From Phoenix dactylifera (Eukaryota; Streptophyta; Magnoliopsida; Arecales; Arecaceae), in assembly GCF_009389715.1 (NCBI RefSeq), contig NW_024067666.1, positions 4,505,001-4,569,000 of the forward strand: DNA of 64,000 bases. The letters are read 5' to 3'. The position numbers and the translations under genes are program-made. Shown here one piece after another: positions 12,050 through 57,164 of this stretch (positions are counted from its first letter, which is position 1; the number at the start of each line of letters is the position of its first letter). A model generated the notes under the pieces. That model saw only the letters and a program-made list of their open reading frames with translations. It ran no database searches and was not told the DNA's origin.

Positions 12050-13295
12050 GTCTAGGCCTTTTAGTTTCTGTCCGGTACGGAGGACTTGGATAAAGGCGGC
12101 AGGCCACCCACCCGGCGGTCCAACTTTCTTAATTAATTCGCGCAGGAGCGGTAAGTTACGTCCAGGACACCGCATACTACTCACAGAACATTCATGGAGC
12201 TCATCAAATCCACGGTCGCCAACACTTTGATGGTGCCTGGATCTGGAGACTACGTATTCATCCACGCATCGCACTTTTTCTATGGAAGGTAGCATGGGGT
12301 TGCCTACCCACTAGGAGTGTTCTGATGCGACGGGGAGTACGGATAGCTGCAGATTGTGTTGTCTGTCCGGAGGTGGAGGAGTCTATCTATCATGTGCTAG
12401 TCGAGTGCCCGCGGGCTGTTCAGATTTGGAGGTCTGCAGGGATCGCCGATGACTCGGGACAGAGATGGTCGTCCATAGCCGAGCTCATCCGTTTCCTAGA
12501 GTTCCCAGGGGCAGGACCCGGGGTGGAGGAGAGAGGGACTCGTGTTGCATATCTGGCTTACCACTCCTGGTTAGACAGGAATGTACGAGTCTTTGAGGGT
12601 CGCAGCTCGTCCCCGGGGGCGGTGGTGGCCAGGGCCTTTCTGCATGCAGAGGAGTTTCTTAGCACTGCTGTTAGGTCACCTTCCAGGTTGGCTAGGGACA
12701 TCTGGGGTACCCCGACCGCTCTTGGAGCGTCCATCTGTTTCGTATCTTGGGTACCCCCACCCCCTGGCTTCCTGAAGGTGAATTTTGATGGTAGTTTGGC
12801 AGCTGACGGTAGTGGTGGAGGTGCAGGCTTCGTCATCCGTGATCATGATGCCAGGTTAGTGGCACTGGGGGGGCAGCGGATCTTCGATGCATCGGTGGTA
12901 TGTGCGGAGCTCCGAGCCGCATGGAAGGGCATATCTTATGCGAGACGGATATTGCATGCCGACTAGGTCATTCTTGAGGGCGACTCAGCCACTGTGATTG
13001 ATTGGATTAGGGGTCGAGGTCGTGCAGGTGAGGGCAGACCGCTACTCATGGATATTCGCGGACTTTTGCAGGCGTGTGGAACCCATCAGGCTACCCACGT
13101 CTACAGGGAAGCGAATTGTGCAGCCGATTGGGTCGCTTCCTATGCGGCTCACCATTCTGGTGGCTTTACTGTGCGGGAGCCCGACACTGTGCCGGAGTCT
13201 CTTTTAGATTTACTTGCTTCTGATTTTGTAGGCCGTATTCATACCCGTAGGGTATGAGCCGCCGTTGCACCTAAAAAAAAAAAAAAAAAAAAAAA
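12050..13295 (+). mobile_element. LINE 3' end: zinc-finger RT tail and RNase H, A-tail
   Basis: 5'-truncated non-LTR retrotransposon. One frame stays open from about 12190 to 13257 apart from a TAG at 12964-12966. It reads through the region after the reverse transcriptase (RIALFLWKVAWG), a CCHC-like zinc finger (DCVVCPEVEESIYHVLVEC) and an RNase H domain (VNFDGSL, GAGFVIRDHD, EGDSATVIDW, REANCAADWVA). An A run at 13273-13294 marks the 3' end. No target duplication was seen. High GC compared with its flanks also marks it as inserted. The reverse transcriptase and endonuclease are absent. Confidence 0.85.
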
Positions 13296-16600: not shown

Positions 16601-19600
16601 GTAACAGTCAAACAAATCATACATCATCTAGTACACAAGAAACTAGCTTATCGAATATAGTTGTAGCCAACTATGTTGGCCAGCTTCAGTTTCATACTCA
16701 CCAAAGGTCAAAACTCAAAATGAGTTAAGATGAGATTTTACCAAATAATTTCTTAAGATATCCAATTCTTTGGCATCGCCACACCTTTTAGGACCTTTTA
16801 ACCTGATCTTTTAATATATCTATTTCAAGGCAGTAAGACCTCTTGCACAAATAGACAAAGCATCTCAAATGGTTTTTCTTGTCTCTGTCCTTTACTAAAA
16901 CCAATCTAATATGTAAATGTTCAGTGTACTCGCTGGACTGCATCATACCAAGGAAAGTTGATGTTGGATTCAGCAAAGCTTATTGAGTTTCAGCCACAGA
17001 AAATTCAGTAGTTTGATTTTAAGTTATGGAGTTCTGGCTGAAAGTTAATGAAAAAATTCTAACAAGTCAGAAGGATAAATTATTTGAAAAAAATAGAATG
17101 TGGAAATATTTAAAGAAAATAAGAAATATATGTATTACACATTAATTAATATTTGTTGTTTTGCCCAGAATATTGGGCTGTATAGTTCTGGTTGTTTCGT
17201 TGAAACTATGGACTGCCATACCACCCTGAACTGCTTGGTTTGGGGCATACTATAGTATATGGGGTTGGAACTAGTACGAAGATCGCATTTGGGTCAGTAT
17301 AGGTCTTATACCGACCCGTACTGTGGCATATGGAGATGAACCGAGGTGCGTACTATGTTGACTTGTGCTGTACTGAACCAGTAGCATGCCGGTATGATAC
17401 ATAGTATTAAGATTGCAGACCTTAGTTGAAACTATTGAAAATATTTAAAAAAATTTAGACAATATTAAATTGCTTGTTTTATACCATTTAGTGTAACATG
17501 TCGTTTAACTGTGTTGCAATAATCTAACACATGGTGCAATTCTTGTCTATTTATGAGCATGAAGAAAATTTTAAAAACATTTTTATGAAAATTTACAAAC
17601 ACTTACCTAAATTTTGAACATTGACAAGATTTGCCTAATATGATTAATATATAAAATTCAGGGAAGGGCTACCCGTAAATATACTTAGAACTTGTTGAGT
17701 TCAGAATTTGCCACCTTACAAACAAGATTCTAGCACAAATCTTGAAATTTCTAGCTGAAGTCTGGCAAATCCACTATGTAGAAGGCCCAATGTCTGTTTG
17801 AATATCTTCTATTCGCTCTCAAAAATGTTATAGAAACCTCTAATATCTCCAATCTTATGATAAACTACCTTGACGAATTTCCTGCAACCAAGAATCCAAA
17901 TACTTCTGGTTTCCTCAAAAGTTGCAATATGCAAGTTTACTTTCTGGAATTTAATTATATGAATGGAGGACCAAAAGATTACACAAATTACCTATATACG
18001 CGTTCTGCAGGTTAGTCTCCAGAGACAGTTGTATTTGGCATAATACAAACATTATGGTTTCAATTCCAGAGTTCACTTGAAATTTAATATTTTAAATTGT
18101 AGTTCTACTGTACATCCACCTAAATTCCTTGTGATTTCTGCTTTTCTTGCGCTAATGTTCATTCTACCTCCAAAACAGCAAAGATGGTCTTACTGCTGCT
18201 ATCCATTTTTTACTTTTTAATTTGTTTTAGTCTCAATTAACCTTAGCATTTGCATAACAGCCTAAGAGGTAGTCCTTGCTTTTTCCACCATAATGCTTAA
18301 TCACAGTACATAATAAAGTACAGGAATCATATGCGGCTAAGTAGGTAGTTTCATGTTTTAAATTTTAGCTGCAAATCATTCATTTCCCACTTAAGTTGTA
18401 CCCAGTGCAATGTTTTCACCCTAATGAATTTTCACCTAATCTCCATGACTTCTTTTTCTTGGTGCAAGCATGTCCCTTTTTTGGCAGCATTTTGCTGTAA
18501 TGCATGTGTAGTGGTGTTGCTGATGTGGCTTTTATGAAAGGCCATATCATGATAGGCTAGTTTTAAAGTTCAGACTTAAGGCAATGGTTTGTACATATCA
18601 ATGACATAAAGCACAAACTGTTTGTGAAGTTTGTGAAATATTGAATGATTCATGAACAATCTGATTATTCAGGCATAAAGAATCATTAAGCCAGAGAAAA
18701 AACGCAAGAATTATCTTAGATTTTTTCATTAGCTTGGAAAACATATTAGGGTTATTGAATGACTTACTTGCAAAACATAGTTGATTTTTAATATATGAGG
18801 AATCTGTAGTATATGGTGCTTTGAAAAATAAATTAATGCAGATGATTACATTCATCATGGCTGCACAAATTGCTTTTAAAAAATTCTTAGCTGTCTAGAC
18901 CAGTAATGTGCAGCTGATTCGAAGCATCTGTATCAAAGAGTGTCAATCTCTTCTAGTTGTTGGATAGTTTATCTCATAATTGCTGTACTGCAGTCTTGTT
19001 CAGGGAAAAGCATGAAATTCACAGGGTCTATGTACGAAGTACAGCCCGAGTGTATGAGATATACTATGCTGCTGATCGGCAGAATAAAAGTAAGGAGTAT
19101 CTGTGTACAGTACGTTGTGGTCCTGCTGCTGCTGCTAGTGAAGTGATGCCACCAAGTAGTTCTGAGGGAGCTATTACCAAAAGCCAAAATGGTAATGATG
19201 GAACTATGGAAAAGCATGAGAAGATGGCTAGAAGTGATAGTAATAATAGCGTTGAAGATGGTTGGGTAGAAGTTAAGGTTCCTGATTCTCCTCAGCAGAA
19301 TGACCAAGCAAATGCTCTGTCAAAGAAGGTTGATGGAAATTCTAGTGCAAATTTTCAGGTTATTTTGCATTTCCCGTTGAACTATGATGCTTCTTTCTCT
19401 TATACATATGGAAAAATTTGTTTTGCAATTGCTTACTGAAAATAACTTGCAGATCCATTATGAGGCAACGGCTGAGATTTCAGATGCTAGTCCTTGTGCA
19501 GCCCTTACACTTCGTTTGCTCTCACTGCAAACTAAGACATGTGTTCATGTAGAGGAAATTTACATATATGCTGATCCTGTCGATTCCCCCAATCCTGATC

Positions 19601-22443
19601 CTCATGTGAGTATGGAGGGAAACTTGAGTGGAAATCCTCTACTTGCCATGCTTGTTCCTGGTCTTCTGCAATTATCTAAATCAGGTACTAGCAGGATACA
19701 GAATAAGTATTTTTCCGTTGACTCGGGGGTGCGAGAACATCAGCATTGTGTGGATAAAGCAGCTGAACAAAGCAGGTTGGACATGTGTGGAACAGGGCTG
19801 CGACAAGCAAATTGTGGTATGATGCAACAAAATTTCGGGCTATTGCAGGAAGAAACCAAGGTAAAACCTGAAAATATACAGTTGGAATCTGGCCAGAATG
19901 TAATCGATCAAATAGATCAAACTTTGGGGCCATTGCAGGAACAAACTGAGGTAAAACCAGAAAATGTACAGTTGGGATCTAACCAGAGGGTAACAGATCA
20001 AGCAGATCAAGAGTTGGGGCCAGTGCAGACACAAACTGAGGTAGAACCAGAATATGTGCAGTTGAGATCTGGCCAGAAGGTAACAAATGAGGTAGAACCA
20101 GAAAACATACATCTGGGATCGAACCACAAAGTAACAGACATGGATCAGGTGCCAAACTCTGTGGTTGAAGAAAATAATCCAGCCTCTAGTCATGTTGAGA
20201 AGGTATTGGATGAGCTAGTCTCAAGAATGGGAAGAATAGAAGCTTTCTGTTCAAGATTTGAGGAAAACATGATGAAACCCCTCAGCTGCATTGAGATGAG
20301 ACTCCAGCGACTAGAGCAGCGATTTGATTCATTTGCTGTGGGAATGCAGTATTCTGAAAGAAACCCTTGTTCAAGGATATCGGCCCCAGAATTTTCATTT
20401 GACGAATCGGACTCAGAGAACAAAGGCTACAATATTTCATTCACAGTAGGGGAGGTTACTGTGTCTAATGACACATCATTTCCAGCTAATGATGTTGCAG
20501 CTTCTGTGCCCGAGTCCAAGATGTGTCCAGGTCTGGCAGTCAAGGCACCTGAATTCTGTAATGAGGATGACTTCTCATTATCAGCCACGGATGGTGCAAC
20601 TTCTGTGCCTGAATCTAATATGCATCCAGGACTGGTGGTTAAGGCACCTGAATTCCCCAATGAAGATGAGGAGTTTCCCAACACTGACAATACTTCAGAT
20701 TCAAGTGTGAAAGATTGCCCCAATGACAATACACCTCAATCTGTTGATGCCGCATTAGCTTCAGCACTGGCAGCATTCCTCACATCAACTACTGTCAAAT
20801 CTCCCAAACGTAGCCCAAATGTGACCGAAAAACCTCATTGGTCTTCTAATGGTATTAACAATGACTCAGATTCGTCTCCTGTTGGCGTATCTTCTGAGGG
20901 ATCTGATAAATTATTCAGCAAAATTGACTTAGAGACAAATGGCTGCGGCACATTGGATGTAATGAAGACAACCAATAGTGACGACTCACTGTCATCAGCT
21001 GATGTTGTGGGAGCTCCTGATACATCTTTAGATGAATCTTATTTGGAAGATAAGGGTTGTGATACATCAGATGCAGCAAGGCATATTGCTGCTTTTGGTG
21101 GCTCATCATTGTTTGCTGATAACATGAACTCTTCTGTGTCTGTGCCCCAGATTTCAGGTTTGATATTTACAGCACCTGAATTTCCAAATGAGGAAGATGA
21201 TTTTATTGACTGTGATAATACTTTAGATTCAGGTGTAGAAAATTGCTTTAAAGATCACGAGGCAGCATTTCTTTCCTCGACAAACGTAAAATCTCCTGAG
21301 CACAATTCAACATTGTTAGGGGCAGCCTTGGAGCTTTTCAATGGTGATAACAATGAGTTGGCCGGGTGCGATCATACCATCGCTAATGCACCCGATCCCA
21401 TCATAACACCGGATAACAATGAGTTGGCCTCCACTTATGTTGAAATTCCCTGTGAAGTTGGCAGAGGGGGTACTACAAACCATGGAAACAACTCAGAAAG
21501 CAAGGTTGATTTGAACCAAATCCTTTACTACTTGCTTCCTGATGGTCGGTTGGAACATGGTGAGCATGCTAAGCTAAGGCATCAGAATGGTTCCACCGAG
21601 CCAACTGTTGGAGGATCAACTGCTGACTGCATGCCTCTCAAAGATGGCATGGAACAGAAGGATCATGGTGTAAAATGGGACAGATCAAGTTCCACAGAGG
21701 CAACTGCAATGGAGGAAGGATATTTCGCACAGAAGGTACCTCATTGTATGGGCTTTCAGTCAAATGGAGGCATCAGCAGCAAATGGCATGATGTAAGCTG
21801 GGTAGATGATGGTGATGCTGAGGAAGCTGCACATGGTAGTCCTTGCTTGAACCAACTGAGCAGAGAGTGGACTGAAGACTGCAGCACAGATTCGAGCTTT
21901 GATGAAAATTTTGTTAGAAGTAAAGTTCAGATTTATTGGTCAGATGATAGCAGCACAGATTCCTTTGGAAGATCTTTCACAGTTAGGCAACAAAGTGGAC
22001 AAGCTGCTAAAAACGACGAGGGTTTCCAAGCCTTAGTTGATGATTTCTCCGTAGGTATTGGCCTAAATTCTGCAGATTCTAAATCATCGGCAGAGCTTAA
22101 ACGGGCTTTTGACTCGAAACTGGATTATGAAGATCGTATTATGGATTTTAAGTTTGTCCTAGCAAGAGATTGGGGAACTAGACTTCCACTTGAACTCTTG
22201 CTGGGTGAAACATCTGATGCTGAGGTGCAAGTTTCAACTGTCAGGGATGATGGCAAATGCATTGCAGATGGACAACAACATGATTTATTTTCATCCCAGA
22301 CGGAGGATAAAAGTTCTACAGCAGTTAATCAGCTTCTAGTGGAGGTGGAAGATCTTAGGGTACGAAGTGAGACATGTCTGTGGGATGCTGATCTGCAAGG
22401 TCGTGAAAGCAGCAACGAGCAGCCATTCTCCAGCCTTATTTAA
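13665..22443 (+). CDS. Large plant-type protein of unknown function (1187 aa)
   Basis: Three exons with consistent phases: 13665-13872, 18994-19358, 19453-22443 (stop included). The 5.1-kb first intron splits codon 70; joining gives EVTILFREKHEIHRVYV, followed by RSTARVYEIYYA and EYLCTVRC, a compact N-terminal region that I believe recurs in uncharacterised plant proteins. Exon 3 begins IHYEATAEISDASPC and contains HVEEIYIYADPVDSP and the hydrophobic LLAMLVPGLLQLSK. Then come 30-residue tandem repeats (19843-20146), a short coiled coil (VLDELVSRMGRIEAF... to about 20340), three PEF(P/C)NED repeats and a long acidic, Ser/Asp-rich tail. No enzyme motif, signal peptide or membrane segment is seen. 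Function is unknown; a scaffold-like, mostly disordered protein is inference. Confidence 0.85.
13873..18993 (+). other. Long first intron (5.1 kb) of the 13.7-kb gene
   Basis: Donor CA|GTAAGT at 13873 and acceptor CTGCAG at 18988-18993. It is AT-rich. A degenerate repeat lies at about 17165-17415; otherwise I see no exon, RNA gene or clear transposon. The open frames inside are short and unrecognised. Confidence 0.7.
17165..17415. repeat. Degenerate repeat rich in GTACC/GGTAC-like words
   Basis: Inside the long intron a segment of about 250 bp is full of related words (CATACTATAGTATATG, ACCGACCCGTACTG, GTGCTGTACTGAACC, GCCGGTATGATAC). Such GTAC-rich segments are common in monocot genomes as remnants of non-autonomous DNA elements. 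Ends and target duplication could not be fixed, so the assignment is tentative. Confidence 0.3.
19843..20146 (+). repeat. In-frame tandem repeat, about 30 residues, 3-4 copies
   Basis: Within exon 3 of the 13.7-kb gene the protein repeats a unit of about 30 residues (90 bp): QEETKVKPENIQLESGQ, QEQTEVKPENVQLGSNQ, QTQTEVEPEYVQLRSGQ, and a shorter fourth unit EVEPENIHLGSNHKVTD. The frame is kept throughout. The units differ by several substitutions each, so the array is old enough to have diverged under retained reading frame. Confidence 0.85.
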
Positions 22444-24129: not shown

Positions 24130-24276
24130 TTATTCAGCTTTGTCATTTTTCTCAGCAGCAACATTGTTACGAATAACTTCCAAGGCCAACTGGCGAGGAG
24201 TCTTGTTCTGCAGATGACCAATCTCATCCATTGCTTCATGTCTGTCTGCAAACCTTTTGAGATTGAACCCTGATGG
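24130..24276 (-). other. Conserved in-frame extension after the SIR stop
   Basis: Directly after the TGA the same frame runs 48 codons to TAA (24130-24132). It reads FNLKRFADRHEAMDEIG, then HLQNKTPRQLALEVIRN and ends NDKAE. This resembles the C-terminal extension I recall from longer plant sulfite reductases (pea, tobacco), giving 686 aa if translated. The stop context is TGA followed by C, the more leaky class in eukaryotes. It may be read through, bypassed by splicing, or a recent loss not yet decayed. Confidence 0.7.
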
Positions 24277-27200
24277 TCACTCCCTAATACCTTCCCATTT
24301 ATCTACCATTTCCTGCAATTTTTCAAAGCCCTGCAAAGTAGCAAAGAAAGAAGAATCACATATGCCGCAACAGTGATTTACTCTCTCTCTCTCTCTTTTT
24401 CCTATATATCTTTTGTGTGTGGATGCCCGTGCATGCTTTGGTGAGGGGTGGCTGTTCCCCAATATTTGTGAACATCCTGGCCTTCACGAAGGTGGGATTT
24501 GAACCCAGGTTTCCGGTACAACCACCAAGAGACTCATCCAGCGGGATGAGCTGGCACCTCCACTTCAACAGTTTGAAAATTGAAGAACTAGATTGCAATG
24601 TTCAAAGCAGTGCAAGAATACCAACTGCTTCTGTTCTCCCATGCTATATGCCTTGCATTAAAAGGGTATTATTCTGTCTAAAATGATTATACTAATACTA
24701 ATCTATTTAAGAATGCATAAACCATTATGTTCACTAATAAATTCATGATTAGAGATAAACAATAGGGTTTGTATATGAGTCTGTACAAGAAGCAAGGATA
24801 ACCTAAATATGCTTGTAGCTGCAACATAGGTAATGGCATCTTTGGATAATAAGCCTGACCAGAGATGGCCAAGAAGCATGATATTGTCTGTCTGGTTCAA
24901 GAACCAATCGCGTGCAATTTGTATCTTTAGACCTATAATTTATTTATGTCTTCCACTAAAAATAACATTATCAATCAGAATACCGCATCTCAAGCAGCAG
25001 ATTCAACAAGTAGCTGGTAAGAATTAAAGATTTTAGTAGATAAGATATAGATATGATACTCACTGTTCTGCCTGTGAATACACCAAATGGTTCACTTTCC
25101 AGGCGTTTTACTTTCCAATTGTAGAACAGCGGCTCCAAAACCTTCTCTAGATCTTGGATCTTCACTTTATTCATAAAGCACTTGGCTAGAGTAGTCTGGT
25201 TAGGCGTCCCCCCAAGCCAAATCTGTTTGTCACAAGCAGTAAACCAGAGCTTATTATTCATTTAATGTTTCAACCGTCAATTGAAAGTTACAGCTTCAAG
25301 CTTCACATTAACTCATTGTGATATCCAGTGTGCTTTCATGGCTGTCAAGTACAGCAAAAACATCTGCTAAGGAGTGATTTTCTCAATTTTGATGCAGGAT
25401 ATGGAAGGTTCCACCCATGTCCAACACAGTTTGATCCCTCAACAACTGTCAGCGTTGAGGTCATAACCAAAATAACATTTTAAAATGTATTGAAAAAGCA
25501 AAAGAAAAAAAAGAAAACTAATCCTCCAAAATATACTGTTAACAAAGTAGGCATTTTAAATACCTGGTAACTGTTGGGGCCATCACCAACAAATCCCAGC
25601 TCAGCCATGTAAGGTCTGGCGCACCCATTAGGACATCCAGTTACTCTTATCACCACTGACTCATCGTGCTTAATACCCACCTAAGAAAGATTTTAATCTT
25701 CAGAAATCAGAACCAAAAAAATCTGCATCTAACACTATATCTGCAATGTATTGTAACATGGTACAGAGAAAGACTGACTAAAGATATACCTTATCAAAGA
25801 CAGCTCTAACCCGTTTAAGGATGCTGGGGATTCCTCTTTCGGCTTCTGTTATTGCTAGCGGACAGAGTGGTAGAGCAGGACATGCCATTGCAGTTATATT
25901 GAGAGGATCAACATACGTAGGATCCTGTAAATATGGCAAGGCAGAACCAGAACAAGTTTTTTCAGGTCACAGAAATTTAATCCAGAAATCCTTGTTATTA
26001 GCCTCTTTGTATTTCAATATAACTGCCTACTTCATAACATGATTCTAGTTTCATCTGATATGTTTGAACCTTCTGTGTACTATAATGATAGTTCAATAAA
26101 TTGTGATGCAATGTCAATATTTCAAAAAATCTACAAGACTTCCAAAGCAGCTAATTTCCTCCAAGCCTCAAGTTGGTTGGTTTTATGAAACATTATATAA
26201 TAGTGACATAAAATGGAATATTTTGGTATCCAAAAAGTGCAAAGGGGAAAAAGTTTTACCAGCAGACCAGCTTCGGTGAGAGCCATTGTGATGGCCTCCT
26301 TCCACGAGTGGTCAATGTCACACAAGATTATATTCTGATTTGGAGTAAGGCGCACATTCAAGTTATAGTTCTCAATTATCTCTCTTAAAGTTTTCTTCAC
26401 GATGCCTCCAATACGACCGTTATCAACATGCAGTCCACAAAACATGGCACCATCACCCTGCAAGTAAATGTGTAAAAACACAATAATAGTGAAAAAGACA
26501 ACTAGGAACATAATGCACTCCATATGTCTAAATACTTAATGATATGATTTTGAGTAAACTATGACTAATAGACTATCATTGAACAACACTGCATAATATA
26601 ATTGGAAAAGGTGAAAATTCACATATGTGAACAAAAACTTAATGAACTATCCATTTAGAAGTAGACCATTAATGGAGCATGGCCCATTATTTTATACTTA
26701 GTAGTTACTATTTCTGGGTTTTAGTGTGTATTACAGCTATGCTGTTATACTTGACATTTTTAATAGCTCAACATTTTCAAAATTTCTTTTCTAGCTTCAG
26801 CAAACTGGAATTTCGGATATCTGATATGCTGACCTGTGAAATTTAGGGACATACTATTTTGTAATGGACTTTAGGTCAACATAGTAATTGGATATACTTG
26901 ATATATATAAAAACAAACCTGTTCGTGCCACCCAACATAGCTTTTGAACTCCCACTCTGGTAGCTCTCGGAAGGTCTCAAACTTCTTCCCATAATACTGC
27001 TCGACAACACTCCGGAACTTTTCAATTCCCCATTCATTAACCAAGTATTTCATTCTACTATACTTGCGATCATCTCTCCTTCCATTTTCTCTCTGTGTAA
27101 CAACAATTGCTTTTACAGCATATAATATATCTTCCTTTGGGACGTAACCCAGTGGTTGACCCAGACAAGGGAAGGTGGTCTCCACCCTGAGTGTTCTTCC

Positions 27201-30200
27201 CATGCCACCTCCTACCTACAAAAATAAAGATTTATCAATCAGCAATAAGAACTCAAGTAGAAGTGCTAGAAAGCTAAAGAAAGGATCATTGCTTTTAATA
27301 TTGTAACTTACATATATATTGAATCCTTGAGGTTCTCCATCACTGTCAGAAACTACTACCACACCAATGTCATTGGTTAGAATATCAACTGAGTTATCTC
27401 TAGGCACAGTGACAGCAATCTTGAACTTTCGTGGCAAGAACTGAGTGCCATATATAGGCTCTGGAGAATCAAGAAAGTTGGTTCCATGAGAATTATCATT
27501 ACGGGCTTTAACTACTTCAGGAGGTTCAGCTGACATGATTTTCTCTCCATCTACCCATAAATCATAATAAGCACCAGACTGGGGTGTCAGAAGTGAAGCA
27601 ATGTTCTCTGCAGTCTCCTGAGCAAAAACATATTCTTTTGTGGTATACGGTGCTGCAGGTGCAAGCACATTTCTGTTCAGATCACCACAAGCACCAAGAG
27701 TTGAGCCCATATTTCTGATGACGGTACTTATTACAGTTTTGAGGTTCTTCTTAAGGATGCCATGCAGCTGGAATGTTTGTCGGGTGGTCAGACGCAGAGT
27801 GCCAATGCCAAACTCATCTGCAAGTTTGTCCATAGCCAAATAAAGCCTGTTTGATACTTTGCCACAAGGGTTCTTAGTTCGAAGCATAAATTGGTAAGAT
27901 CTTTGACCACGTTCATCTCGATTAGTCTGTTGATAGCTTCCGTGAAACTTAATCAGTTGTGTGGCAGCCTCATTTATATTTGGAGCCTCTGTTCGCAGCT
28001 CCTCGTTCAAGGGATATCTAAGAAAGTTGCTTTGCTCCTTGAATACTTCAACCTTGCTCCGTTTAACTTCAGAAGCATCTGTCTTTACAGGCTGTATAAA
28101 GATGTAAGTTAAGTACCCACAAATATATGATCACATCTCACTATATTAGAGCTACAATCTAACAAATACTAACAAAAGTCTAGATAACCTGTTCCCAGTA
28201 ATTGACTATAGATGTGTCTAGTCTAGTGGGAATGGAAATAAAAACTAAATATGTATATCAGAAATGCTATGAGAATTTATTACTAAGGAATCTCAAGTTT
28301 AGCAACTCGATTTAACATAGAATAACAGTGTAGAAGCAAAAGAATGGACAGATAATGATATCATCTTTTCAGTTTGTACTTTTAGATATAAAAAACAAAA
28401 GCTTCAATAAACAACTACAACTGAGCTTTGTCGATACAGTTTGTCAATTTATATATATGTCATCATAGAACACGTGCAGCTAAAAAAATCAATGCAATTT
28501 CCATAAACAGTAAAGCTGCTGAAAGAATCCAAAACAGGGCAATTGGCTTAATACAAAGACAAAGACGTTCTCACAATATCCTTTACATGCTTTCAAATAA
28601 TAATATGATGCCATAACAACAACAAAGAATAAACAGGGAAAAATAAGATTCCTTGCAGATGCTAACAAACACTGACTATATGAGTTTCTTTAACACTTGT
28701 AAATGATACAACTTATTTCCCCATTAACAATATCTAATACCGCTAAAAGGGGTTACTTTATCACAAATTATGTGCTTTGAAGTATAGGCAATAATTTATA
28801 TTAAAAAGCATCTCAATCAACAATGATTCCTTATGCGATACTATTTTGATTGATGAGTAAGCTCGGTTTGAATGCTTGATCTCAAAATTGTGCATATTTC
28901 AGCCAACTTGAAGTATGGACCTAAATTCTAGCACACTACAATAAATTTCAACAAGCTTTATACATAACCTGTTATATTATATTAATAAGCCTCAGAACTC
29001 ATAATTATAATTGTAAGTGAAAAGAAAAATTACACAAAAGAGCAATGCTAAGTAACAATTTTTGGGGGGAAAACCCTCGAGAATGTACTCTTTCAGAAAG
29101 AAACATCATGCTCTGATGGGTAGGTTCCATCAGGCGCATGCTCCTTCCCCAGAACGAGATTTTTCTAGGTTGTAATATTCCTTACAAAATTGGCATCTCA
29201 CAAGTATTGATAATTTAACCATCTGTATGACACCATTAAAGACAGCAAATATACGTAACAAGTAATCCACCATAATCTGGAGGCATATAATTTTAAAAAA
29301 GCAAGAGAGGAAGACCATGGGCAAGTGTTTACATGCTGCAAGTTTATGAAAAAATAAACTCAGCATTCAGCCATGGAAAATATCTCCAAGTTACACAGAA
29401 GAGAGGAACAGGATGGAGCTGATTGGAAGGCTAAAATTACCTTCCTGTGGTTGGGGTCTAGCATTGGTCTATTAAAGCAGATCATGCAGCAGATTACAGT
29501 CAAAAAAAGTTGGGCTTATTCTCATGGATGTGGATTTGAACTTCCTTAGAAACAGGTACATAAGCTGGAATTACTTTAATGACTGATGCCAAGAAGGTGC
29601 AAATCCTACCATTTATCTGTTCTGATCTCATTTCCTCATCAAGATCTGTTTCCTTCAGGACACACTAGCTCAAGTAATAACTACTTTAAAGAGCATGAGA
29701 ACTTATACTAGCTAACTCGATATCTTTAATGTCAAGTCAGGAATAAGAAATCCATGGTCATGCAATTAAATGAAAAAGAAAAAAAAATAGAACTGATTCA
29801 ATACAAAGACCATGGTCATGCAATAAAAAGATAAGTGATGATGAATATACAGGCTCAGTAGTATGAAATCATATCAATGCTAGTTGGAAGATGCAAGTGA
29901 AAAAAGGAGGTGGGGGTCGAATAGCTAAAAGGGCAAGTGCTCCACAAACAAAAGCTTAGCATACGGTGGGGAAAAAAAGCAACTTGGCTCGCGATTGGAG
30001 AACAACATTCGGACTGGATTCCGATATGGCTAATCTAACACCACTCTGATATCAAAAGCCAACCAATCTTCAATTTTTCATGAATTACACTAATTCCCTA
30101 AAGAAAATCTTCAATCACTCATCGAATTATATCTCGAGACAAGAGTCTATACCGGGAATAAACCACATGAATCGACCCAAAATGAAAACTTCCAGCACAA

Positions 30201-30716
30201 TAAGGGTACGTTTGGTTCGCGACTGGAATCGGAATCAGAATCGAAATGAATTGAATGGGAATCGAATGGCTATAATCCCCGATACATTTGGTTCTTGACT
30301 GGAATCGGAAATGAAATCGAAATGGGATTTGAATACTAGGGAGTGTCAGGATTGGATACTGGGGGATTGGGGCATTTCCATTCCGCTCCGGAATCGGAAT
30401 GGGAATGGGACCCTCCGAAACCAAACGGGGGGAATGGGAGTCGCTCATTCTCATTCCCGAGCCCAACTCCCCCCAACCAAACATGCCCTAAACCTACAAG
30501 GACATAAAACCCAAGCAAATTTCGCCAGAATGCAGCACTCACCGAAGACACGGCCCTTATAACGCCCGGAGAGCTCGAAGAAGGCGTCAACGGTTGTGCC
30601 CGCAGTGATCTACCAAGGGCAATCGATCCGGAACGCCTCAGACCATGAAATCCATGCCTCAGGACCACCGGATCCTTCACGGAACCGGCCATCCCCGTCG
30701 CCGCCGACGCTGCCAT
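24277..30716 (-). CDS. SIR: Ferredoxin-sulfite reductase, plastid
   Basis: Reduces sulfite to sulfide with ferredoxin in plastids during sulfur assimilation, using siroheme and a 4Fe-4S cluster. Exons: 30543-30716, 27312-28091, 26919-27215, 26260-26457, 25790-25924, 25564-25680, 25064-25222 and 24277-24330 (with TGA), giving 637 aa. Residues 1-58 are Ser/Arg-rich and fit a transit peptide. The cluster cysteines are intact: [10 protein letters not shown] (C498, C504) and TGCPNGC (C544, C548). [12 protein letters not shown] and [10 protein letters not shown], conserved in the family, are also present. The start ATG (MAASAATG) is chosen by homology; the frame is open upstream to 30956. The TGA at 24277-24279 ends the protein 17 residues into the last exon, where Arabidopsis SiR also ends as I recall, but the frame then stays open for 48 more codons to TAA at 24130. 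Confidence 0.95.
24415..24570 (-). mobile_element. tRNA-derived SINE-like insertion in SIR intron
   Basis: On the minus strand, inside the last SIR intron, a segment carries a B-box-like GGGTTCAAATCCC and, about 35 bp before it, an A-box-like TGGATGAGTCTCTTGG. The spacing and words fit a tRNA-derived SINE; the ends and target duplication are unclear. Confidence 0.45.
30201..30491. mobile_element. Harbinger/Tourist-like MITE in SIR intron 1
   Basis: A 285-bp element (30204-30488) with terminal inverted repeats GGGTACGTTTGGTT and, reversed, GGGCATGTTTGGTT, flanked by TAA on both sides (30201-30203, 30489-30491). A three-base TWA target duplication and GGG...TTTGGTT ends are typical of PIF/Harbinger MITEs. 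The interior is rich in GGAATC-type words. No transposase frame is present. Confidence 0.75.
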
Positions 30717-44114: not shown

Positions 44115-44994
44115 CTAAAATAAGGAGCGCTTGGAAGGAGCTCTACCCACAGCCCTCATCAAATTAGCCAAATCCAAAACTTTCGCCACCTTCGTCCCCC
44201 TCTTTGCCTCCGACGACGCCCTCTTCTCTTCCGCCTTCCGGTGCGCTCTCGCCAAATCGTTCTGCATCTTCTCAATTGCCTTTGCTCTCTTTTCATCCAG
44301 TTTCCTCTGCATAAATTGGCATCATTAAGAGTTTTATAACAATCATCTCATCGATATATAATTCTCTCAGAACTATCCAACTCAAGAACATATATAGATT
44401 AGTTACCTCTACTTTCTTCAACCACGCCGTCGCCTTCTCGATCTGCTCGCTTTCCCATCCATTGATGATCATGTCCTCCCGCTTGAGCCGGTTGCTGATT
44501 TTGGCGATCTCGGAGGTCTGCCATGCCGATATCTTGGACTCGACCTCCTCCTTCTTCACCTGCTGCACCGAGAGCTCCTCCACAGGGGCCGGGGAGTCAG
44601 CCGGCGGTGCATGAGTGGGCGAGGGGATGGGATTGTTGTCCGGGACGATCGCGAGCGGGTTCGTCTCCTCAAGCTCCTCCTCTCCGATCCTCGCAAGGTT
44701 CAGCCCGTCGTGGTTGCCGTTGCTGGCGTTGCTGTCGTTCTGCATGGTGGATCCGGCGACGACCATGGCGTTGAACTCTCTGCTCATAGTCGAGAGGTGC
44801 TCGCTGGGGACGTCGCTCCCCACGGAGAGCGTCGACCAGCGGTGGCTGCTGGCCTCCCACGACTCCCTCCTCCGACCGCGGCTCGACGAGGGCTCGGAGG
44901 ACGGAGGTAGCTCGTGGATGTCGCGGAATTCGGTCTCGTCGGCGGCGGCGGTGTCTACTTCTTCTCCTGTTTGAGGCCTTTGATCATTCAACAT
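44115..44994 (-). CDS. REM4: Remorin, group-4 type
   Basis: Plant plasma-membrane nanodomain protein family. Exons 44407-44994 and 44115-44306 give 259 aa. The N-terminal part has FRDIHELPPSS, SEHLSTMSREFNAMV, and RIGEEELEETNPLAIVPDN, matching the N-terminal signature I recall for Arabidopsis REM4.1/4.2. The C-terminal remorin domain (about residues 145-257) has KISAWQTSEIAKI, INGWESEQIEKA, WLKKVERKLDEKRAKAIEK and a coiled-coil run of Glu/Lys/Ala, ending APSKRSLF. The start is the first ATG (MLNDQRPQ). Group-4 remorins have been linked to stress and hormone signalling; membrane association is through the C-terminus. The closing residues are slightly shorter than I recall for Arabidopsis. Confidence 0.93.
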
Positions 44995-45940
44995 GTCAAG
45001 GTGGGGGGTGCAGGGAAGAGGTTAAGGGATTTGGACCAGGGGGGTGGGGTGGTGACCATTAATTCGTTTAGGGAGAGGGGAAAGGCAGGCTTCTCTCTTG
45101 TAGGTGATGGTGGAAGAGGGTTCGAGCTAGCCACGCATAAAAAAGGGTTTGGTGGAGTGACAGCAACCAGTGAGGACTTGAATGTTAAAGAGGCATGGGC
45201 TATGAATGGCGTGGCACCAACTTTGTTTCTTTTATAACGATATTAGTTTGTGACCGGACCCACTCACAAGCACTTTGAAGGGGATATTATTCCTTTTATT
45301 TTTGACTGGTTGTTGCAATAGGAAGTGCTTTGTCCTGATCTGATGGTGCTTTGAATGGTAACTCATGCGGTTCCCTTAAATTGATTTTAAATATAATATT
45401 GTTCCCACTAGGCCACTATTATGCTTTAAGGAAAGAAAACTAAAGATATATACTTGTACCTCTAAAGAAAACTAATTAAACATACTTGGAGCTCTGGCTT
45501 ACCTTGGCACTGATCTCTGAATGGATGAACCATTCATTAATTTGTTGTGCAACAATAACAAAGGCCAGGGTTATATGTAAGGGTAAGATAGGATTACCCC
45601 TTCTCTCCCTCTCCATGTGTGCGAGTGTGATAATAAATTAATTCTTCAATAATCCAAAAATCTCACACAAGCTGCTGTACTGTTAAAGTGTAATCTTCTT
45701 ATTATTTTATATACATTGGCGATTGAAAGGGAATCATGGAAGATTAATTATGTATGTATAAGCTGCTTAAATTTTATGTGAAGTATAGATAGCAGTTACT
45801 TTGAAGAATTTGAAGTTTCCTCCGGCTTGGATAGATTAAAAAACTCAGATATTTTTATCATCATCTAAAGTAAATTATCTGAGTAAATTGCATGTGGTCT
45901 AGAGTTAGATAATGATACAACCATCATTCTAACTTAACTC

Positions 45941-56195: not shown

Positions 56196-56601
56196 CTAAG
56201 CTACCATCATCGACAAGATTCATTCATATTTGGTTAGAAACCGTAACGGGGCACAATATTTTAAAAAGCAGAGTGAAATGAAGAATAAAGACCAAAAAAA
56301 AAAAGAACAGAAAAGAAATTGGTCCAAAGTACCGTGAGGTCCACCAGCACTGCACCACGATCCTCCTTTTCTTCAAATCTGCTCGGCTAAGGGTACCGAC
56401 CCTGCGTCAGTTCCCATTGTTTCAGCTTTGTTAAACTCGAAGAAACAAAAAAACAACAAGAATGCCAATCAAGAAATATAAGAAACACGAGAAGAATAAA
56501 AACTTCAGAGGCTAAAACCCTTCAAGAATCGATGAAAACCCTCATCGGAACAAGAAACCATTAATGTCCATCGAAACTCAAGCAAGTGAAACAAGAACCA
56601 C

Positions 56602-57090
56602 GACCGTAGGACAGAAACCCTCGGCATTGGGTCAAAACCCAAGCAGGGGAAGGAATCACATAAAGAAGGAAGAAGAAAAAGAGAGAAGGGGAAGAGAGAG
56701 AGGAGAGATGGAGTACCGAAAGCACCGAGAGGCTCCGGTAGGCGAATCAGTCGTACAGACCGGGGATCATGGACTTCCAACGGCGATACCTCTTGTCCAC
56801 CGCTCGGCGAGAGACCCCATTCTTTCCTTCATCTGCCTCTCTCGACCATAGGACAGAAACCCTCGGCATTGGGTCAAAACCCAAGCAGAGGCAAGAATCA
56901 CATAAAGAAGGAAGAAGAAAAAGAGAGAACGGGAAGAGAGAGAGGAGAGATGGAGACTTGGAGTACCGAAAGCACCGAGAGGCTCCGGTAGGCGAATCAG
57001 TCGTACAGACCGGGGATCATGGACTTCCAACGGCGATACCTCTTGTCCACCGCTCGGCGAGAAACCCCATTCTTTCCTTCATCTGCCTCT
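56602..57090. repeat. Tandem duplication of a leader, about 245 bp
   Basis: Copy 1 (about 56602-56842) and copy 2 (about 56843-57090) are head to tail, nearly identical, offset 242 bp at their starts; copy 2 has 8 extra bases (GGAGACTT region). On the minus strand each copy carries the same 21-codon open frame (57017-57082 and 56767-56832), starting MKERMG and ending VGSP. Together with the TATA box at 57165-57173 this looks like a duplicated 5' leader with two upstream ORFs. Confidence 0.85.
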
Positions 57091-57164
57091 CTTCCTCTCC
57101 CTTCTCCTTCCCCCTCGCTCTCGCTCTCTCCGCGGGCGTTGTGCCGCCTGAAACGAGAGGGGCT

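What the first reader, a model, noticed from the sequence alone, without database searches (positions are those of the whole stretch)
24130..24330. Sulfite reductase: leaky-context TGA followed by 48 conserved in-frame codons
Seen: the last SIR exon has TGA (followed by C) 17 residues in, then the frame stays open for 48 codons with extension-like sequence (LKRFADRHEA, QLALEVIRN) to a TAA. Known, from memory: Arabidopsis and maize SiR (about 635-642 aa) end near this point, while pea and tobacco SiR (about 685-693 aa) carry a C-terminal extension; TGA-C is a readthrough-prone stop class. Inferred: the gene may make both a 637-aa and a 686-aa form by stop readthrough, or has just lost the extension.
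Basis: partly seen in the sequence, partly recalled or inferred. Interest (0 to 1): 0.75.

Follow-up and report, generated by a model that had tools for sequence, protein, structure and literature searches.

The report
Sulfite reductase tail behind a stop
A plant sulfite reductase gene has a stop signal just before an otherwise intact stretch that seems to encode the tail thought to bring this enzyme to chloroplast DNA, so this plant has either recently lost the tail, or makes it only by reading through the stop, or the stop is a sequence error.

Summary
An intact eight-exon ferredoxin sulfite reductase (SiR) gene lies on the minus strand (30716-24130). Codon 638 is TGA (24279-24277), followed by C; then come 48 open codons (24276-24133) and TAA. 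The 48 codons look coding: 0.37 per codon against 0.25 for the SiR body; 0 of 542 open intron stretches reach it. The enzyme body is normally constrained.

Readthrough is possible but not supported. TGA-C is a weak stop, yet neither CUAG nor CARYYA follows and no downstream RNA structure stands out. A frame of this length stays open long without selection (P 0.39 at 0.05, 0.15 at 0.1 substitutions per site). Best reading: a stop gain cut off the tail. Error and programmed readthrough stay open, because no plant relatives or reads could be reached.

New lead: cyanobacterial SiRs carry a ribbon-helix-helix (DNA-binding type) tail at this place (79 of the 80 loci returned; 41 of 47 in a phylum draw). 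The plant peptide may descend from it, but the similarity in this window is not significant by most tests.

The parts
30543..30716 (-). SiR exon 1 (start codon; N-terminal region, probably transit peptide)
   Evidence: ATG, GT donor, phase 0; 'transit peptide' is inference from plant SiR being a plastid enzyme
27312..28091 (-). SiR exon 2
   Evidence: TIGR02042 match of the joined protein
26919..27215 (-). SiR exon 3
26260..26457 (-). SiR exon 4
25790..25924 (-). SiR exon 5
25564..25680 (-). SiR exon 6
25064..25222 (-). SiR exon 7
24130..24330 (-). SiR exon 8: 17 codons, TGA, 48 codons, TAA (the 3' end of the transcript is not known)
24277..24279 (-). in-frame TGA, context GAG-TGA-CCATCA
24133..24276 (-). 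48 open codons: C-terminal extension cut off by the TGA; predicted helix-loop-helix (helices at residues 6-19 and 27-47 of the extension)
   Evidence: AlphaFold2 single sequence, mean pLDDT 79, pTM 0.41; coding score
24130..24132 (-). TAA that closes the extension frame

Best explanation
The gene is a working chloroplast ferredoxin-sulfite reductase whose main product is a 637-residue enzyme without the C-terminal nucleoid peptide. A stop gain in the last exon cut off a formerly translated 48-residue tail; the tail is now translated at most at the background rate of a TGA-C stop and is drifting. Shown: gene structure, TGA, coding-like 48 codons, normal constraint on the enzyme body. Inferred: that an ancestor translated the tail as part of SiR, that the TGA is real in the organism, and that constraint on the tail is relaxed.
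For: Eight clean exons, and an enzyme body with 7 private changes against 7 in maize at 257 sites that are at least 95% conserved in 76 cyanobacterial SiRs, so the gene does not look like a pseudogene. The 48 codons score as coding. No known readthrough motif and no significant RNA structure. Neutral simulation: the frame stays open with P 0.68 at 0.02, 0.39 at 0.05 and 0.15 at 0.1 substitutions per site, so an open frame does not require selection (indel rate assumed). Maize SiR ends near this point, so an enzyme without the tail is viable (635 residues, PMC6249382 passages). If the tail is a ribbon-helix-helix domain, 5 of 12 core positions that are hydrophobic in at least 90% of 113 cyanobacterial tails are not hydrophobic here (R8, R12, H13, P27, N38), which fits decay (register set by me on the QNK/QGK turn).
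Against: No second stop or frameshift in 48 codons, and a coding score above the body's mean: the loss must be young, or the tail is still used. The core-position argument depends on a homology that most tests here did not establish. No relative with or without the TGA was seen.
Confidence: 0.5

Rival explanations
1. Programmed readthrough: the TGA is kept and a minor share of SiR is extended by 49 residues, giving a nucleoid-binding form beside the soluble enzyme.
For: A stop followed by C is weak (PMC4132726 passages); TGA is over-represented among the 144 readthrough genes found in Arabidopsis, some with new localisation signals in the extension (PMC9293766 passages); the 48 codons are open and coding-like.
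Against: CCATCA matches neither CUAG nor CARYYA (motifs); RNA folds z +0.93, -0.48, +0.71, although a 9-bp stem is predicted from the 11th base past the stop when 61 bases are folded alone; 'sulfite' does not occur in the main text of the Arabidopsis readthrough paper (its supplementary gene list was not available); 5 of 12 presumed core positions are lost.
Confidence: 0.2
2. Sequence or assembly error, or a rare or null allele: the organism's usual gene has a sense codon here and makes a 686-residue SiR.
For: The rest of the gene is intact and the frame after the stop is open and coding-like, as a single wrong base would leave it.
Against: No other stop or frame break in the 2061 bases of joined exons. 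The presumed core changes in the tail would not be expected in a fully functional tail, if the homology holds.
Confidence: 0.22
3. The transcript avoids the TGA by splicing, so the tail is still made.
For: A 21-base GT...AG stretch, a multiple of three, spans the TGA (24290-24270, read).
Against: 21 bases is far shorter than plant introns are known to be (recalled). The five in-frame AGs after the TGA would remove nearly all or all of the first predicted helix.
Confidence: 0.03
4. The open frame is chance 3' UTR and was never coding.
For: 174 of 2586 TGAs in the window are followed by 48 or more open codons.
Against: Coding score above every one of 542 overlapping open intron stretches; predicted helix-loop-helix; same place as the reported plant SiR C-terminal peptide and the cyanobacterial tails.
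Confidence: 0.05

Closest known systems
Land-plant SiR with C-terminal nucleoid peptide (pea, tobacco, soybean DCP68 type)
   Different: Here a TGA separates enzyme and extension
Tail-less plant SiR (maize, PDB 5h8v)
   Same: 80% identical over 573 aligned residues; ends within a few residues of the same point; also eight exons, 635 residues and a TGA stop according to PMC6249382 (passages and figure legend)
   Different: Whether maize keeps any trace of the extension after its stop was not testable here
Cyanobacterial ferredoxin SiR with ribbon-helix-helix tail
   Same: Homologous enzyme with a short tail at the same place
   Different: Its tail has a ribbon-helix-helix signature and no stop before it; the window tail does not reach significance against it
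PutA (enzyme fused to a ribbon-helix-helix domain)
   Same: Metabolic enzyme plus small DNA-binding domain, as an analogy for cyanobacterial SiR; the PutA domain (2jxg) is matched by the tail profile only at E 0.38
   Different: Different enzyme, domain at the other end (recalled)

Membership tests
Ferredoxin-dependent sulfite reductase (TIGR02042) | Whole-protein score above the curated cut-off | tested here: met
   1049.4 bits against 731.5, residues 62-632
Ferredoxin-dependent sulfite reductase (TIGR02042) | Normal constraint at conserved sites | tested here: met
   7 window-private and 7 maize-private changes at 257 sites; 44 sites changed in both
Nucleoid-type plant SiR with C-terminal peptide | Peptide in frame with the enzyme without a stop | tested here: not met
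   TGA at 24279-24277
Nucleoid-type plant SiR with C-terminal peptide | Sequence similarity of the extension to known peptides | not testable with these tools
   no plant SiR with the peptide was found in the collections I could search; text search for recalled peptides found 0 papers
Nucleoid-type plant SiR with C-terminal peptide | Nucleoid localisation or DNA compaction | not testable with these tools
   needs an experiment
Programmed stop-codon readthrough genes | Weak stop context | tested here: met
   UGA followed by C
Programmed stop-codon readthrough genes | Stimulatory motif (CUAG or CARYYA) or downstream RNA structure | tested here: not met
   CCATCA follows; fold z-scores +0.93, -0.48, +0.71
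Programmed stop-codon readthrough genes | Extension conserved in relatives that share the stop; footprints past it | not testable with these tools
   no plant collection or reads at hand; no genome held for the window
Ribbon-helix-helix domain (the 48-residue extension) | Significant profile match | tested here: inconclusive
   Pfam: no ribbon-helix-helix family; HMMER with the tail profile: 429 of 5000 shuffles rank above it; hhalign E 0.033, probability 1.5%; PSSM: 176 of 3000 shuffles and 17 of 574 open stretches of the window as good, 0 of 148 SiR 48-mers; pairwise: 70 of 300 shuffles as good by best score, 19 of 300 by mean
Ribbon-helix-helix domain (the 48-residue extension) | Strand, helix, helix with hydrophobic core | tested here: inconclusive
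   Two helices predicted, no strand in the monomer; 7 of 12 core positions hydrophobic; Foldseek none for the single-sequence model, nothing better than E 2.6 for the alignment model

The most novel reading that the evidence does not exclude
Plant SiR inherited from the cyanobacterial ancestor of plastids a ribbon-helix-helix DNA-binding tail that ties sulfur assimilation to the plastid chromosome, and in this plant the tail has been put behind a leaky TGA, so that readthrough sets the ratio of soluble enzyme to DNA-bound enzyme.
Probability: 0.12. Interest if true: 0.85.

Novelty: new variant of a known kind. Interest (0 to 1): 0.42.

Why it matters
SiR is a two-job protein: it reduces sulfite and compacts plastid DNA (PMC4154389 passages). 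A gene caught with the DNA-related tail just behind a stop shows how the second job could be dropped, or dosed, without touching the first. The side result, a ribbon-helix-helix tail on most of the cyanobacterial SiRs examined, offers a testable origin for the DNA-binding job. I found no mention of it in the held open-access library ('sulfite reductase' with 'ribbon-helix-helix', 0 papers; with 'CopG' and 'cyanobacter', 1 paper, a review of bacterial copper homeostasis by its title and the start of its abstract). Most subscription papers are not in that library.

Tried and rejected
Whole genome of the window: none held, so a second SiR copy could not be looked for; within the window a 20-base probe from the extension has one match, itself. 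Viral contigs with the SiR C-terminus: one weak 34% hit, not used. Text search for recalled plant tail peptides: 0 papers. The key paper on the SiR C-terminus (Kobayashi 2016, PMC4898807) is not held; only its title and one citing sentence were seen; further searches for it gave one citing paper and a listing of nine, of which I opened only PMC6249382 and PMC4154389. Search for readthrough with sulfite reductase and plant: 0 papers; for 'CEP' with Physcomitrella and sulfite reductase: 0. Splicing around the TGA: no in-frame acceptor that spares the first helix. Extension against PDB sequences: two NEMO entries at E 0.089, rejected as chance. Pfam MC1 (a chromosomal protein family) for the extension, E 0.024 and below its cut-off, rejected; NCBIfam none. 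Rfam on the window at gathering thresholds: 0. From memory, unverified: the tail of dicot SiRs has hydrophobic or aromatic residues where the window has R8, H13 and N38, and two more residues before the first helix; if right, this favours both the ribbon-helix-helix homology and decay here. It is a lead, not a test.

Full report
The observation. The window has no whole genome held. On the minus strand eight exons (30716-30543, 28091-27312, 27215-26919, 26457-26260, 25924-25790, 25680-25564, 25222-25064, 24330-24130), all phase 0, join to 637 codons, TGA (24279-24277), 48 codons and TAA. The protein is a ferredoxin sulfite reductase: TIGR02042 at 1049.4 bits against a cut-off of 731.5, and maize SiR 5h8v aligns with residues 59-633. 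The maize chain has six further residues, so it ends close to the window's TGA.

Is the gene sound? Among 257 alignment sites that are at least 95% conserved in 76 cyanobacterial SiRs (76 of the 80 fetched; four with 560 residues or fewer were left out), the window has 7 private changes and maize has 7; 44 sites differ from the cyanobacterial residue in both. So the enzyme body evolves like that of a working gene, and the TGA is not part of a general decay.

Are the 48 codons more than chance? Length alone is not: 174 of 2586 TGAs in the window are followed by 48 or more open codons. Codon usage, trained on the SiR body and on the last 900 codons of the neighbouring long reading frame (19381-22443, taken to be coding), gives 0.371 per codon in this frame, 0.112 and -0.351 in the other two sense frames, a SiR body mean of 0.252 (on training data), and 0 of 542 overlapping open intron stretches as high. 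A structure prediction from the single sequence gives two helices, residues 6-19 and 27-47 of the extension (mean pLDDT 79, pTM 0.41).

What is the extension? [quoted passage not shown] PMC4154389 (passages seen) reviews SiR as an abundant nucleoid protein that compacts plastid DNA, and notes that maize SiR was not found in a maize nucleoid proteome although it was found in unfractionated maize plastids. The position here fits that peptide; its letters could not be compared.

A deeper origin. I searched bacterial and archaeal genomes for the SiR C-terminus. 79 of the 80 carry, by length and by eye, a tail of the kind RHRVS...Y..LK..A..QGKPMT.LV.EAL..YL after the enzyme; L035 lacks it. In a separate draw of 117 genomes of the phylum, 52 have a match and 44 a match over the family cut-off. 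I examined 47 SiR matches, those 44 and the next three. 41 of the 47 have the tail (E below 1e-14 with a profile built from the first set), and 41 of the 44 over the cut-off; L104, L131 and L132 lack it. The two sets overlap in part (for example L001 and L082). Of 33 tails that I chose out of 79, 23 match Pfam RHH_5 at E up to 0.1 (best 4.9e-7) and most other frequent families are ribbon-helix-helix too; the five tails scanned stay below the curated cut-offs. A profile of the 33 finds ribbon-helix-helix proteins in the PDB: AvtR 9.9e-6, ParG 5.5e-4, ORF56 0.0012, and weaker ones. Cyanobacterial SiR thus commonly is an enzyme with a ribbon-helix-helix tail. DNA binding by that tail is inferred from the fold.

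Does the plant extension descend from it? The evidence is suggestive only. Against: with the HMMER profile 429 of 5000 shuffles rank above it; Pfam gives no ribbon-helix-helix family; local pairwise scores are unremarkable (70 of 300 shuffles reach the best score, 19 of 300 the mean); hhalign gives a probability of only 1.5%; 17 of 574 open stretches of the window score as well with the profile; Foldseek finds nothing for the single-sequence model, and for the model made with the cyanobacterial alignment, which leans towards that fold (helices 6-22 and 27-47, pLDDT 82), nothing better than E 2.6, although PutA (2rbf, TM 0.65 by query length) and several antitoxins of this fold are among the 50 listed of 56 rows, mixed with homeodomains. 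For: the same place in the same enzyme; hhalign E 0.033 over the end of helix one and helix two; a profile score reached by 176 of 3000 shuffles in any register, by 4 in the same register (chosen after the fact), and by 0 of 148 48-mers of SiR itself. In the register set on the QNK/QGK turn, 7 of 12 core positions are hydrophobic; helix two is well kept (L30, A31, V34, I35, V39), while R8, R12, H13, P27 and N38 break the pattern. Either the homology is wrong, or this copy has lost core residues. Neither reading favours a fully functional DNA-binding tail made by readthrough.

How would it work? A stop followed by C is weak (PMC4132726 passages), and TGA is over-represented among 144 Arabidopsis readthrough genes (PMC9293766 passages). 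But the bases after it, CCATCA, are neither CUAG nor CARYYA, and three folds of the downstream RNA are unremarkable. A simulation without selection (4000 runs each; substitution pattern, indel rate of 0.12 per substitution and indel lengths assumed by me) keeps the frame open with P 0.68, 0.39, 0.15, 0.056 and 0.026 at 0.02, 0.05, 0.1, 0.15 and 0.2 substitutions per site. So an intact frame bounds the age of a neutral stop but does not show selection.

Verdict. The most likely history is a stop gain that made SiR tail-less in this lineage, as maize SiR is. Error or polymorphism and programmed readthrough come next, about equal. The novel core lies outside the window: the ribbon-helix-helix tail of cyanobacterial SiR as a possible source of the plant nucleoid peptide.

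Noticed in passing
L001-L080 (79 of 80), L082 and L090-L135 (41 of 47): Cyanobacterial ferredoxin sulfite reductases commonly end in a ribbon-helix-helix tail, joined by a linker of variable length; not found in print in two library searches.
   Followed up: partly
window 24290-24270, minus strand: A 21-base GT...AG stretch, a multiple of three, spans the TGA (read); too short for a normal plant intron (recalled).
   Followed up: partly
window 24266-24218, minus strand: A 9-bp stem starts at the 11th base after the TGA when 61 bases are folded alone (z -0.48, not significant).
   Followed up: partly
window 19381-22443, plus strand: Long reading frame (1020 codons from stop to stop) converging on SiR, with tandem repeats of 90 and 99 bases (multiples of three) and no Pfam match at E 0.01.
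   Followed up: no
window 44293-45021, minus strand: Reading frame with part of a remorin domain (Remorin_C E 6.8e-11).
   Followed up: no
window 12133-12966, plus strand: Piece of a retroelement: zf-RVT E 7.5e-17, and RVT_3 below its cut-off.
   Followed up: no
window 56601-57092: Two tandem copies of a 250-base unit, 94% matches.
   Followed up: no
G096:C23:12477-13520: A weaker relative of SiR in one cyanobacterial genome has four in-frame stops.
   Followed up: no
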